This document shows positions 2-58,776 of a stretch of 64,000 bases of DNA, piece by piece. The notes below the pieces were generated by a model, which made no database searches, was not told the DNA's origin, and saw only the letters and a program-made list of their open reading frames with translations. The stretch covers positions 124,001-188,000 of the forward strand of contig DASTAW010000048.1 of NCBI GenBank assembly GCA_035712365.1. The letters run 5' to 3'. A program made the position numbers and the translations under genes. Numbering within the stretch: position 1 is the stretch's first letter; each line of letters starts with the position of its first letter. This stretch comes from Terriglobia bacterium. GTDB taxonomy: Bacteria; Acidobacteriota; Terriglobia; UBA7540.

Positions 2-2860
2 TACGATCGGAAGGGGCGGAGGCCGGATCCCACCGAATATCTGACCTTGCTAAAGGATTATGTGAAGCAGGCCAGGGAGTTGGTGGCAATTGCCGGTCCC
101 CGGCAGGTTATCCGTATCAGTAGCTGCGACCAGGCCGGGCCGTTGCTCAAAACCCTTGGCTACGAGCTGGCAAGCCCCTGCGGACCGGACACTTACCTCG
201 TCACCGGTGACTCTGAAAGGGCCTTTCTCACCGATGATTCGGGATTCCCTCTTACGGCCCTCGAGCAAACACTGCGCGGAGGCCAACCTTTCGAGTACGG
301 TTTTGAGTCCGTCAAGGTGCCGGTGTTATTCAGCCAGGGCGATTGGATGGCACTTGACCCGAATAAGAAGGATGATTTACTGGACGCCATCCTCTCCGAC
401 GCGGGAGTAGCAAGACTCTACTGGGCCATGGCGCGGATTGACCGGCACACTTGCGAATATCTCCGGAAATCCCCGGGCCTCAAGGGCCTTTTGCCTCTTG
501 CCCCGGCCCTCGATTTCTATGGTAGCCAGATCACGATCCAATCGGGACGCATCATGGTGCCTGGAGGAAAACCGGCTGAAGGGGCCTGGGCACAACTGGC
601 GGGAGCAAATCCCGGCTCCCCTGGCCAGTTTGTGCTTCACGTTCTTGCCAAGGATGACGGTTGGCTGGCCGCCTATTTTGATGGGCTGTCGCGGGTTGAT
701 CCCGCACAGCAGGCCTATGTGTCACAATCTCATCACCTTCAGAATTTCTATAAGGCGCTGGTTGGCAAGAACCCCTCTCCCGGCCCGGCGCGCCCTGTTT
801 TCAGGCCGGACGCTGGGTTGCTGCTCCTCGTGTCTGGTCTCCAATTGGATGCGAATGGCAAACCCCAGATTCCGGGCGGACTGGTAGCGTGGAAGGCAAT
901 TCTGCAGGAGCTCCAGCGCCAGGACCATTCCAAACTGGTCCACGAGTGGGCCGGGCACGCGGCACGGTGGACCACCGCCGAACAGTTGTTGGAATCCATG
1001 TTTGCATTCTCCCGGCTCAATATTGACGACGGGCCTCTGCAGGCTTACCTCTCAATCAGCGGAATTGATCGCACGCGTTCTTCAGGAACGCGCCTGACGC
1101 CCGATACGGTGCGGTTGCTTGCAACCAACTTCAAGAAGTTTGGCGACCAATACCTCACCTTTTCTGAATTCCCCTTGGACAACCCTTCGATCACAAATTT
1201 TATTCGTGCTGCTGAGGCAATTGATGAAATCCACGACCGTAATTTGCGGTCCGACAGCCTCGGCATTTTCCAGGCCAACATAGGCCTCTGGAAAATTCTG
1301 GCCAGACAGCGTGAAATCCCTGAATCAAACTGGGACAAATCCTGGCAGGCGTTGATTAAGCCGTTTACGGGAATCCGCACCTCCGGCCAGCTCTATGATG
1401 CTGCCCGGACCTCGACTCGGGCGCTCTTGCAGGCATCAGCGGGGAACGCCAATCTCTCGCAGGCCGGGATCATCGACTTGCTGGCAGGGCCGGCGCAGAC
1501 GAGCCCGGAAGGCAGAGAGGTGAGGACGGACCTGGCCAATAAGCTTCGGATGATGATGGCGGCTCAACGCCTCGTCCCGCTCGATACTCTGTTCGAATTG
1601 GGCGACGGCCTGGAACAAATGGCTAAGGGTGGCGCGCCGTCCTCAGCCCTGGTTCCTTTGGCGGCGCAGCTCCGTCAGTTCCAGCTTCCCAAGCCTCTGT
1701 TCACCAGAGGTGAAAGGGCCGAGTGGTCCATGGGCCTTTACGAGAACCAGCATCTCCAGAGCGAGATGCAGACAAACCTCGCCAAAATAATACAGACGAG
1801 ACCTTCGGCTGACAGGCTTCGGGCGGCGCGCGGCGATTTGGTTCCGTTCCTTAGAGACACACTGGTGGGCCTGAACTATGCGTATTACGAACCTCCTGGC
1901 GCCCAGATGATTTACAACAACGTTCTGTTCGTGCGCTCCCACGATTTTTCGGGTGCAAGCAGCATGGAAGAAGATCGCTCCTGGAAAACTCCTGATCTCT
2001 TCGGTCGCGGCCTCTCAGCCGGCGGAGGCGCTCATCTGGTCGGCTCACTTTCGAACCTCCCGTACGTCCTCGCACAAGTGGAGGAGAACTTCATCGTGCC
2101 GAACAGCGTGCAGTCCCTGATCTGGGAAGATCTCGTGCCAACCTTAATAGCCGGAGCGGTGCTTCCACGCTGGTGGCATGTGACAAGAAATGAGCTCCAC
2201 GCGGTCACACTCTACCAGAGGTTTGGCGAAGAACTGGTGAAGGCTGCTGGTACCGATCCTCAATTGCGCGCAAAAGTGATGGGAATCTTTTCCGATCGCA
2301 TGCTGCCTGCGCGGTTTGAGGAGGTTGGGCAAGAACTGAGCGACGGCCGTTCCAGCGCCGCCCTTGCCCAGATGACACCGGCTGATTTGTTCTGCCTGGC
2401 CGCGGCGTTCAGGAAGAGCTTCCCTTCGGAGGACCCTGAAGGAGGAGAAGCCGAGAAGGAATTCGACCAGCTTGCCCAGCAGCATCCCAATGAGGTTAGC
2501 TGGGAGCGGTTGTCAGCGGATTTTGGGGTGCCGCATCCCGCCCTCGGTGGGACTGACGCGCGATCGTTGGTCAACATGAAACCCTTTCCCACCTACCTGG
2601 GTTACTCCAGCCGGCTGTTAGCGGAGTCCTGGGAGTCCAACAATTTGTACTGGGCCCGGCTGGCAGACGAAAAAGGCTACTCCCCGGTGATGCTGAATAT
2701 GCTGGTTCCGCAACTGACCTATCGTATGGTCGAGAACATTGCGGCTACTTATCTGGACGATTGGCCTGCTCTGCTCCGAGCTTTGCGGGTGACGGGGGAG
2801 GAGTTTCAGCAGGGAAAGCTGGCTTCGTTGCCAGGCGCGGGGAGTAGAGCCGGACTCTAA
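2..2860 (+). CDS. Large protein of unknown function, 5' end outside window
   Basis: The frame is open from the first base of the window, and the residues before the first possible start (a TTG at 47) read as ordinary protein, so the gene almost certainly begins upstream. About 952 residues are visible. I do not recognise a named domain. There is no membrane segment in the visible part, and the protein is rich in Leu, Ala and aromatic residues with Gly/Pro turns. It ends 81 bases before a secreted VWFA-related gene on the same strand, so the two may be co-transcribed. That partner suggests an acidobacterial lineage-specific exported or envelope protein, but this is inference only. The missing N-terminus would show whether it carries a signal peptide. 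Confidence 0.8.
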   Translation, partial: YDRKGRRPDPTEYLTLLKDYVKQARELVAIAGPRQVIRISSCDQAGPLLKTLGYELASPCGPDTYLVTGDSERAFLTDDSGFPLTALEQTLRGGQPFEYGFESVKVPVLFSQGDWMALDPNKKDDLLDAILSDAGVARLYWAMARIDRHTCEYLRKSPGLKGLLPLAPALDFYGSQITIQSGRIMVPGGKPAEGAWAQLAGANPGSPGQFVLHVLAKDDGWLAAYFDGLSRVDPAQQAYVSQSHHLQNFYKALVGKNPSPGPARPVFRPDAGLLLLVSGLQLDANGKPQIPGGLVAWKAILQELQRQDHSKLVHEWAGHAARWTTAEQLLESMFAFSRLNIDDGPLQAYLSISGIDRTRSSGTRLTPDTVRLLATNFKKFGDQYLTFSEFPLDNPSITNFIRAAEAIDEIHDRNLRSDSLGIFQANIGLWKILARQREIPESNWDKSWQALIKPFTGIRTSGQLYDAARTSTRALLQASAGNANLSQAGIIDLLAGPAQTSPEGREVRTDLANKLRMMMAAQRLVPLDTLFELGDGLEQMAKGGAPSSALVPLAAQLRQFQLPKPLFTRGERAEWSMGLYENQHLQSEMQTNLAKIIQTRPSADRLRAARGDLVPFLRDTLVGLNYAYYEPPGAQMIYNNVLFVRSHDFSGASSMEEDRSWKTPDLFGRGLSAGGGAHLVGSLSNLPYVLAQVEENFIVPNSVQSLIWEDLVPTLIAGAVLPRWWHVTRNELHAVTLYQRFGEELVKAAGTDPQLRAKVMGIFSDRMLPARFEEVGQELSDGRSSAALAQMTPADLFCLAAAFRKSFPSEDPEGGEAEKEFDQLAQQHPNEVSWERLSADFGVPHPALGGTDARSLVNMKPFPTYLGYSSRLLAESWESNNLYWARLADEKGYSPVMLNMLVPQLTYRMVENIAATYLDDWPALLRALRVTGEEFQQGKLASLPGAGSRAGL

Positions 2861-54142: not shown

Positions 54143-54246
54143 CGTCGTCATCATGAGGAGCCCCGTCGGAAGGGGACGGCAAAGGATTTGCTGCGTTTGT
54201 TTTTCTAAGGATACAGCAGATTCTTCGCTGCTGCTCAGAATGAAAA
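54143..54246. repeat. CGTCGTCATC...CTCAGAATGA dispersed repeat beside the IS110 gene
   Basis: About 104 bases, starting CGTCATCATGAGGAG and ending CTGCTGCTCAGAATGA, with inner word GCAGATTCTTCGCTGCTG. Same family as 39584-39682 and 58670-58776. Its right end abuts the IS110 leader. Confidence 0.6.
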
Positions 54247-54324
54247 TATGAAAACGCGACTCCTGCCGTCGGCGTAAGCTGACGGTGGAAGAAAAGATTC
54301 CTCGAAGAGGAAAGGAGCCGCGCC
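54247..54324 (+). other. Structured leader of the IS110 transposase gene
   Basis: 78 bases with two hairpins: CCGTCGGC-GTAA-GCTGACGG (eight pairs with one G-T, GNRA-type loop) and TTCCTC-GAA-GAGGAA. IS110 elements encode a guide (bridge) RNA in their non-coding ends; this leader is shorter than known examples, so it could be only part of one. Confidence 0.35.
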
Positions 54325-55197
54325 ATGGAAGAATATATCGCATTTGACAGTCACAAGCACTACACCTGGGTGGAGCGGGAAGAGGCGAGCAGTGGCAGAG
54401 TGCGGCAGTATCGGGTGGAGCACGCGCCGGGGGCGATTCGTGGAGCGCTGGCCGGGTGTGCGCCGGGGACGGCGGTGGCGGTGGAAGCGACGGCGAACTG
54501 GTACTGGATTGTGGATGAGATTGAGCAGGCGGGTCTGGCGCCGAAGCTGGTGCACCCGCGCAAGGCGAAGCTGATGATGGGGATGATCAACAAAACCGAC
54601 CAGATGGACACCCACGGGCTGAACCGGCTGCAGCGCAACGGCACGCTGCCGACGGTGTGGATACCGCCCGGGCCCTTGCGGGAGTTGCGCGAACTGACGC
54701 GCACGCGAGTGGCGCTGGTGGCGCAACGGACGCGCTGGAAGAACCGGGTGACCGCGACACTGGCCAAGTACGGCGCGGCGGCGAGCGAATACAGCGACCC
54801 GTTCGGGCCGAGGGCGCGAGAGGAGATGGCCGCCCGCAGTGAGCGCCTGCCGGGCGTGGGAGTGATCCTGTCGGCTACCCTGCAACTCGAGATCGGCGAG
54901 ATCGCACGCTTCCCCAGCGCCGAACATCTGGCGGCCTATGCCGGCACCACCCCGCGCGTGCACTCCAGCGGCGATCGCACCCGCTACGGACGCACCCGGC
55001 CCGATGTCAACCGCCACCTGAAGTGGGCCTTGGCCGAAGCCGCCAATTCCGTGGCCGTCAATCATGCCCGATGTCCGGACCGGCATGTCAGCCGCCTCTA
55101 CCGCCACCTGCGCGAACGTAAGGGCCACAGTAAGGCCATCGGAGCCGTGGCGCGCCATCTGGGCGAGGCCGCCTTTCACCTGCTCGACCCCGTTTGA
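54325..55197 (+). mobile_element. IS110 family transposase
   Basis: 290 residues, start with AAAGGAG seven bases upstream. DEDD-type RuvC-like N-terminal domain: Asp in YIAFDSHKHYTW near 8, Glu in VAVEATANWYW near 58, and the Asp pair in NKTDQMDTHG near 92-95. The C-terminal Tnp domain has AYAGTTPRVHSSGDRTRYGR near 215 with the catalytic Ser in SSG, then NRHLKWALAEAANS. The protein appears intact, at the short end of the family. IS110 elements usually lack terminal inverted repeats and are now known to be guided by a bridge RNA. It sits between the GNAT leader and the 3' end of the RND pump gene, next to a GTCATC-type repeat. Base composition is close to that of the neighbours. Confidence 0.9.
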
Positions 55198-55276
55198 ACT
55201 ACCGGAGTTCCTACTTGACACCTCGCGCTTTCAGAGATGACGGGCACCTACCTCCACGACCTGATCAGCCACCCGA

Positions 55277-58669: not shown

Positions 58670-58776
58670 GTCATCCTGAGCGTAGCGAAGCATCTGCTGT
58701 ATCTTCCTGAAAGGCAATGAAGCAGTTCCTTCGCTCCGTCCCGTCCCAAAAGGGGCAGGCCTCCGCTCAGGATGAC
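58670..58776. repeat. GTCATCCTGAGCG repeat with 16-bp terminal inverted repeats
   Basis: GTCATCCTGAGCGTAG at 58670-58685 and CTCCGCTCAGGATGAC at 58761-58776 are inverted repeats with 15 of 16 matches. Inner words CGAAGCATCTGCTG and CAGTTCCTTCGCTCC are shared with the copies at 39584 and 54143. It lies inside the efflux operon. Confidence 0.75.

What the first reader, a model, noticed from the sequence alone, without database searches (positions are those of the whole stretch)
54143..55276. IS110 element abutting a GTCATC-type palindromic repeat
The repeat at 54143-54246 ends where the element's leader begins, and GTCATC-like sequence recurs past its right end (55230-55245, minus strand GTCATCTCTGAAAGCG). 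Several IS110 relatives are known to target REP-like palindromes. The guide RNA of this one may be matched to this repeat family.
Basis: partly seen in the sequence, partly recalled or inferred. Interest (0 to 1): 0.52.

Follow-up and report, generated by a model that had tools for sequence, protein, structure and literature searches.

The report
Broken RNA-guided jumping gene in palindrome
A jumping gene of the RNA-guided IS110/IS1111 type sits exactly inside the end of a repeated palindrome, the same kind of site its relatives' guide RNAs spell out, but this copy has lost its guide RNA and part of its enzyme and is probably stranded there.

Summary
A 997-bp IS1111-type element (54243-55239) has split a REP-like palindrome (54147-54242 on the left, AC at 55240-55241 on the right) at a shared TG. 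Joining the flanks restores CTCAGAATGAC, which is present, without the element, between the same two genes in a congeneric genome. All 8 left junctions examined in the close group read CTC[AG]G[AG]ATG. In relatives an RNA encoded 3' of the transposase has covarying stems and two guides that match each element's own left and right flank far better than shuffled flanks (0 of 20,000 shuffles on either side). For this copy it fails: a 162-bp deletion removed the guide region, a 135-bp in-frame deletion removed the second coiled-coil helix of the recombinase, and no such RNA was found in the window or its genome. Most likely it is an immobile relic of a known kind: a REP-targeting, bridge/seekRNA-guided IS1111 element. 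The added value is natural guide-target matching across several phyla and a clean empty site.

The parts
54147..54242 (+). REP-like palindromic repeat, left part up to the insertion point (ends CTCAGAATG)
   Evidence: genome-wide family, 49 half-copies in own genome
54241..54242 (+). TG shared by target and element end (putative recombination core, left copy)
   Evidence: TG was part of the patterns used to extract the relatives' ends
54243..55239 (+). IS1111-type element, 997 bp, deletion derivative
   Evidence: alignment to L034 and to the empty site
54249..54259 (+). left subterminal inverted repeat TGAAAACGCGA (10 of 11 with the right one)
54325..55197 (+). DEDD/serine transposase (recombinase) gene, 290 aa, lacking 45 aa of the coiled-coil linker
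54840..54852 (+). junction of the 135-bp in-frame deletion (ER|LPGVG)
55183..55188 (+). junction of the 162-bp deletion that removed the gene's 3' end and both guide loops of the RNA
55223..55233 (+). right subterminal inverted repeat TCGCGCTTTCA
55238..55239 (+). TG core, right copy
55240..55241 (+). last two bases (AC) of the split palindrome
   Evidence: joined flanks give CTCAGAATGAC, as in G001
58670..58776 (.). second, intact copy of the palindromic repeat (GTCATCCTGAG...CTCAGGATGAC)

Best explanation
This is the relic of an IS110-family, IS1111-group insertion sequence that inserted by RNA-guided, scarless recombination into the end of a REP-like palindrome of an Acidobacteriota-type genome. 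In intact relatives the RNA encoded just 3' of the transposase carries two guide pairs. One loop reads the target: its 5' guide pairs with the top strand right of TG, and its 3' guide equals the top strand left of TG. The second loop resembles the element's own joined ends (seen by eye, not tested). In the window copy two deletions removed the second helix of the recombinase coiled coil and the guide region, so it should no longer move by itself. Shown here: insertion point, empty site, RNA structure covariation, guide-target matching in relatives, both deletions. Inferred: that recombination is RNA-guided in this clade as in IS621 and ISEc11, that the copy is immobile, and that the deletions came after insertion.
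For: Pfam domains. AlphaFold model of relative L051 matches IS621 recombinase structures (best E 1.5e-14). Subterminal inverted repeats. Empty orthologous site in G001 between the same genes. 8 of 8 close left junctions at CTC[AG]G[AG]ATG. RNA stems: 86.2% of cells paired, 13 of 21 pairs with changes on both sides, covariation score 0.326 against 0.124 shuffled and at most 0.085 slid. Guide-target matches: left 112 of 168 positions (24 elements) against 55.4 +/- 6.0, right 103 of 140 (20 elements) against 54.4 +/- 5.5, 0 of 20,000 shuffles each; with related elements removed, 90 of 126 (n=18) and 89 of 112 (n=16), again 0 of 20,000. Linker present in 19 of 19 relatives aligned, absent only from the window; predicted helix 177-207 lies inside the missing 175-219. 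RNA model: no credible hit in the window (best 6.6 bits, inside the gene), none in the own genome at E<=1, while it rings in 12 of 299 genomes of the class. Window branch has more amino-acid changes (20.5 nonsynonymous to 31.5 synonymous) than L051 (3.5 to 40.5).
Against: The window reading frame has no stop and keeps the DEDD and serine residues, and pairwise dN/dS is 0.14-0.18, so decay must be recent or the gene may still be used. L052, the outgroup in the three-way count, also has many nonsynonymous changes (27 to 53). The genome is a draft in 65 contigs, 98.9% complete, so a misassembly or an unassembled autonomous copy cannot be ruled out. The RNA was not shown to be made. Some elements fit poorly on one side (right side: L069 2 of 7, L085 1 of 7, the latter probably a wrongly chosen end).
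Confidence: 0.9

Rival explanations
1. The shortened element is a working non-autonomous (MITE-like) passenger: its ends are intact and a relative's recombinase and guide RNA move it in trans.
For: Both subterminal repeats and the TG cores are kept. Donor ends are served in trans in the published reporter assay (PMC11187229, passages).
Against: Single copy in its genome. No compatible RNA and no close second transposase: the other listed matches in G000 are 32-38% identical over parts.
Confidence: 0.12
2. Insertion at the palindrome is chance adjacency; element and repeat are unrelated.
For: The window copy of the palindrome is degenerate (z -1.07) and such repeats are common.
Against: 8 of 8 junctions at the same base of the repeat, restored empty site, guides that spell the site.
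Confidence: 0.01
3. The recombinase recognises the palindrome by its DNA hairpin (protein- or structure-led, as proposed before the guide RNAs were known), and the RNA match is secondary.
For: Several targets in the clade lie in palindromes: inverted partner clearly better than shuffled targets in L056, L082 and G118.
Against: Only those 3 of the 21 sites show a clear inverted partner; L055 and others match their guide without one, so the guide match is the common factor.
Confidence: 0.04
4. Assembly artefact: the deletions come from collapse of several copies in a metagenome assembly.
For: Draft genome in 65 contigs; multi-copy relatives in G005 do break at contig ends.
Against: The copy lies inside a 390-kb contig, is single, and both deletion junctions are clean with one in frame.
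Confidence: 0.05

Closest known systems
IS1111-group elements with seekRNA, e.g. ISPa11 (targets REP of Pseudomonas aeruginosa), ISEc11, ISKpn4 (PMC11187229)
   Same: DEDD transposase, subterminal inverted repeats of about 11 bp, in relatives a non-coding RNA 3' of the gene with the top-strand complement 5' and the bottom-strand match 3', site-specific insertion, REP as target
   Different: Here Acidobacteriota-type hosts and their own palindromes; the window copy has no RNA and a shortened recombinase
IS621 and bridge RNA (PMC11208160, PMC11208158)
   Same: Recombinase fold, target and donor loops in one RNA, core dinucleotide, REP target in E. coli
   Different: RNA lies 5' in IS621 and 3' here; core TG instead of CT; long subterminal repeats here
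REP-inserted IS110-family elements ISPpu9, ISPpu10, ISPa11, ISRm19 (PMC1525189)
   Same: All copies at a fixed base of the host's REP
   Different: Other hosts and repeats; guide RNA was unknown in that paper

Membership tests
IS110 family (DEDD recombinases) | PF01548 and PF02371 domains | tested here: met
   both above the curated cut-off
IS110 family (DEDD recombinases) | catalytic DEDD and Tnp serine residues | tested here: met
   D8, E54, D92, D95 and S260 columns kept in the window (residue roles from PMC11208158)
IS110 family (DEDD recombinases) | recombinase fold RuvC - coiled coil - Tnp | tested here: not met
   relative L051 has it; the window copy lacks coiled-coil helix 2 (residues 175-219 of L051). 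It is therefore filed as a deletion derivative, not an intact member
IS1111 group | subterminal inverted repeats of 11-13 bp | tested here: met
   11 bp, 10 of 11 in the window
IS1111 group | terminal extensions of 7 bp left and 3 bp right | tested here: inconclusive
   6 nt left and 4 nt right between repeat and shared TG; depends on where the ends are set
IS1111 group | long non-coding region with guide RNA downstream of the gene | tested here: not met
   met in relatives, deleted in the window copy
IS1111 group | top-strand complement precedes bottom-strand match in the RNA | tested here: met
   in relatives only; no RNA in the window copy
REP-targeting IS elements | element splits a REP at a fixed base; empty site restores the REP | tested here: met
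Bridge/seekRNA-guided elements | RNA made and bound by the recombinase, programmable in an assay | not testable with these tools
   needs RNA sequencing and transposition assays

The most novel reading that the evidence does not exclude
The 290-aa recombinase without coiled-coil helix 2 and without a guide RNA of its own is still in use, either borrowing guides in trans or doing another DNA job. Its open frame, kept catalytic residues and intact ends do not exclude this.
Probability: 0.05. Interest if true: 0.6.

Novelty: new member of a known kind. Interest (0 to 1): 0.33.

Why it matters
It confirms by sequence comparison alone, in uncultured Acidobacteriota-type bacteria and in relatives from several other phyla, that IS1111-type guide RNAs spell their insertion sites on both sides of a TG core, and that the host's abundant palindromes serve as landing pads. 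The elements found give a set of naturally reprogrammed guides with their targets for anyone testing such recombinases. The window copy shows how such an element dies: guide and dimer helix are lost while the gene stays open, which a gene-level annotation would call an intact transposase.

Tried and rejected
Searches that led nowhere: viral contigs with the L034 protein gave no match. Exact full palindromes in the own genome: only the one at 58670; the looser half-pattern gave 49. First scripts for guide extraction were faulty: one search found only 3 elements (pattern too long) and one search missed all left ends (off by one); one search is the corrected version used for the test.

Rows dropped before counts. 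Guide test: 30 elements were tried; L075, L077 and L078 gave no RNA match and were left out, leaving 27. Of those 27, L080, L083 and L085 had no left end by pattern (24 counted) and 7 had no right end (20 counted). The right-hand score takes the better of two registers, in observed and shuffled data alike. Protein alignment: (28 rows) failed on a stop in L054, (24 rows) failed on stops in L082; one search kept 20 rows (19 relatives). Dropped on the way: L054, L059, L061, L079, then L065, L075, L077, L082; none was dropped for its linker. The structure counted was read from L051-like folds and that same alignment, which favours it over the slid control; the shuffles and covarying cells are the stronger part.

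Considered and rejected: a REP-following clade in all hosts. The test for an inverted partner near the site was clear in 3 of 21 sites only (the window itself was not among them, 60 of 500 shuffled targets as good), so this is not claimed. A tRNA target for L055 was suspected from memory; ARAGORN found no tRNA in the joined or unjoined sequence, so it is left open. Within-genome retargeting in G111 is real but between copies 86-90% identical in the gene, and natural retargeting is already described for other IS of this group (PMC11187229).

Full report
WHAT IS THERE. The window carries one IS110-family transposase gene, 54325-55197, 290 aa, with the DEDD_Tnp_IS110 and Transposase_20 Pfam domains. 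It is the only close copy in its genome, a draft of 4.67 Mb in 65 contigs. The gene lies in an element of 997 bp, 54243-55239. The ends are set by a left junction CTCAGAATG|AAAATATGAAAACGCGA and a right end TCGCGCTTTCA-GAGA-TG|ACGGG, with 11-bp subterminal inverted repeats, 10 of 11 alike.

THE REPEAT. To the left lies a REP-like palindrome whose half-pattern occurs 49 times in the genome (control pattern 0). An intact copy lies 4.4 kb away at 58670-58776. The element splits the window copy just inside its end: joining the flanks gives CTCAGAATGAC. In the same-genus genome G001 the same two neighbouring genes flank a site that reads CTCAGAATGAC with no element, and the joined window sequence aligns to it without a gap at that point. 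The window palindrome is worn (fold z -1.07).

OTHER COPIES. Close relatives were found by protein and DNA search. All 8 left junctions examined, including the window, a 24-bp left-end remnant in the same genome (G000:C39), two ends in G005, G009, a remnant in G027, G118 and L052, read CTC[AG]G[AG]ATG followed by the element end. C39 and the G005 ends were found with a query that included the repeat; G009, G027, G118 and L052 were found by protein alone. Four right ends in G005 begin ACAG (3) or ACAT (1).

THE GUIDE RNA IN RELATIVES. Just 3' of the gene, relatives share a 98-113 nt stretch. On 25 sequences a structure with an outer stem, a conserved GCGC stem, a loop with an apical hairpin, and a second loop has 86.2% of cells paired and 13 of 21 pairs with changes on both sides. 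None of 500 shuffles reached the paired percentage or the covariation score, and sliding the partners gives at most 45.6% paired. In the first loop the 3' side matches the bases left of TG in the insertion site, and the 5' side is the reverse complement of the bases right of TG. Across 24 left and 20 right flanks, matches are 112 of 168 and 103 of 140 positions against 55.4 and 54.4 expected on shuffled pairings (0 of 20,000 each); with close relatives removed (18 and 16 elements) the result stands. The match follows single changes: L051 CAGAA, G118 CGGAA and L052 CGGGA all meet the same letters in their own flank. Order and position fit the IS1111 group as described in PMC11187229 (abstract, passages and section 13 read).

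WHAT THIS COPY LOST. Against L034/L051 (82% aa identity) the window lacks 135 bp in frame inside the gene and 162 bp at its 3' end. The first deletion takes residues 175-219, which 19 of 19 aligned relatives keep. In the AlphaFold model of L051 (mean pLDDT 87.8) they hold the helix 177-207. [quoted passage not shown] The second deletion removes both loops of the RNA. A covariance model of the RNA finds nothing credible in the window or the own genome at E<=1, although it rings in 12 of 299 genomes of the class. A count of changes in three sequences gives 20.5 nonsynonymous to 31.5 synonymous on the window branch against 3.5 to 40.5 for L051 and 27 to 53 for the outgroup L052: relaxed but not yet neutral. 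The frame is open and the catalytic residues are kept.

MECHANISM. Best reading: an RNA-guided, scarless insertion at TG into the palindrome end, followed by decay that removed guide and dimer helix. RNA guidance itself is inferred from the match and from the family, not tested. Papers on the family (PMC11208160, PMC11208158, PMC1525189, PMC11187229; passages read) already report bridge RNAs or seekRNAs, REP targeting and natural retargeting, and PMC11187229 notes that 17 of more than 350 catalogued elements had no long non-coding region. So the kind is known. Two literature searches, for Acidobacteria with REP and for IS110 bridge RNA phylogeny, showed in their listings no report of this clade; that is not proof of absence. 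The Acidobacteriota label of the host rests on named relatives (L051 and L052 records), not on a name for the window.

LIMITS. Draft genomes, no expression data, no reads. A wider claim, that the whole clade follows host palindromes, was tested and is supported in 3 of 21 sites only.

Noticed in passing
own genome G000:C39:28474-28505 (L002 about 1501-1532, minus strand): A 24-bp left-end remnant of the same element at CTCAGAATG, followed directly by CTCAGGATGG: a second, nearly erased insertion in this genome.
   Followed up: partly
L115 (G018:C312:8103-8247): A right-end remnant in which the RNA's first half is replaced by palindrome sequence, the junction lying exactly at the 3' guide (CTCGGAATG|CGACACACC). 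It looks as if the guide-coding DNA, which copies the target, itself served as a crossover point.
   Followed up: partly
L045 (G118:C211): Right end with its RNA present twice in tandem behind one transposase gene fragment.
   Followed up: no
L069, L071, L072, L087 (one genome, G111): Copies 86-90% identical in the gene carry different guides, some of which match their own right flank (L087 strongly; L069 poorly): natural retargeting within one genome.
   Followed up: partly
own genome, C21, C64, C39, C38 and others: Ten Y1 transposase (PF01797) matches, 9 over the cut-off, candidates for the enzyme that spreads the palindromes.
   Followed up: no
L055, near 1904: Insertion site resembles the 3' half of a tRNA gene (from memory) and matches the guides 7 of 7 and 6 of 7; ARAGORN found no tRNA in the short joined sequence.
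   Followed up: partly
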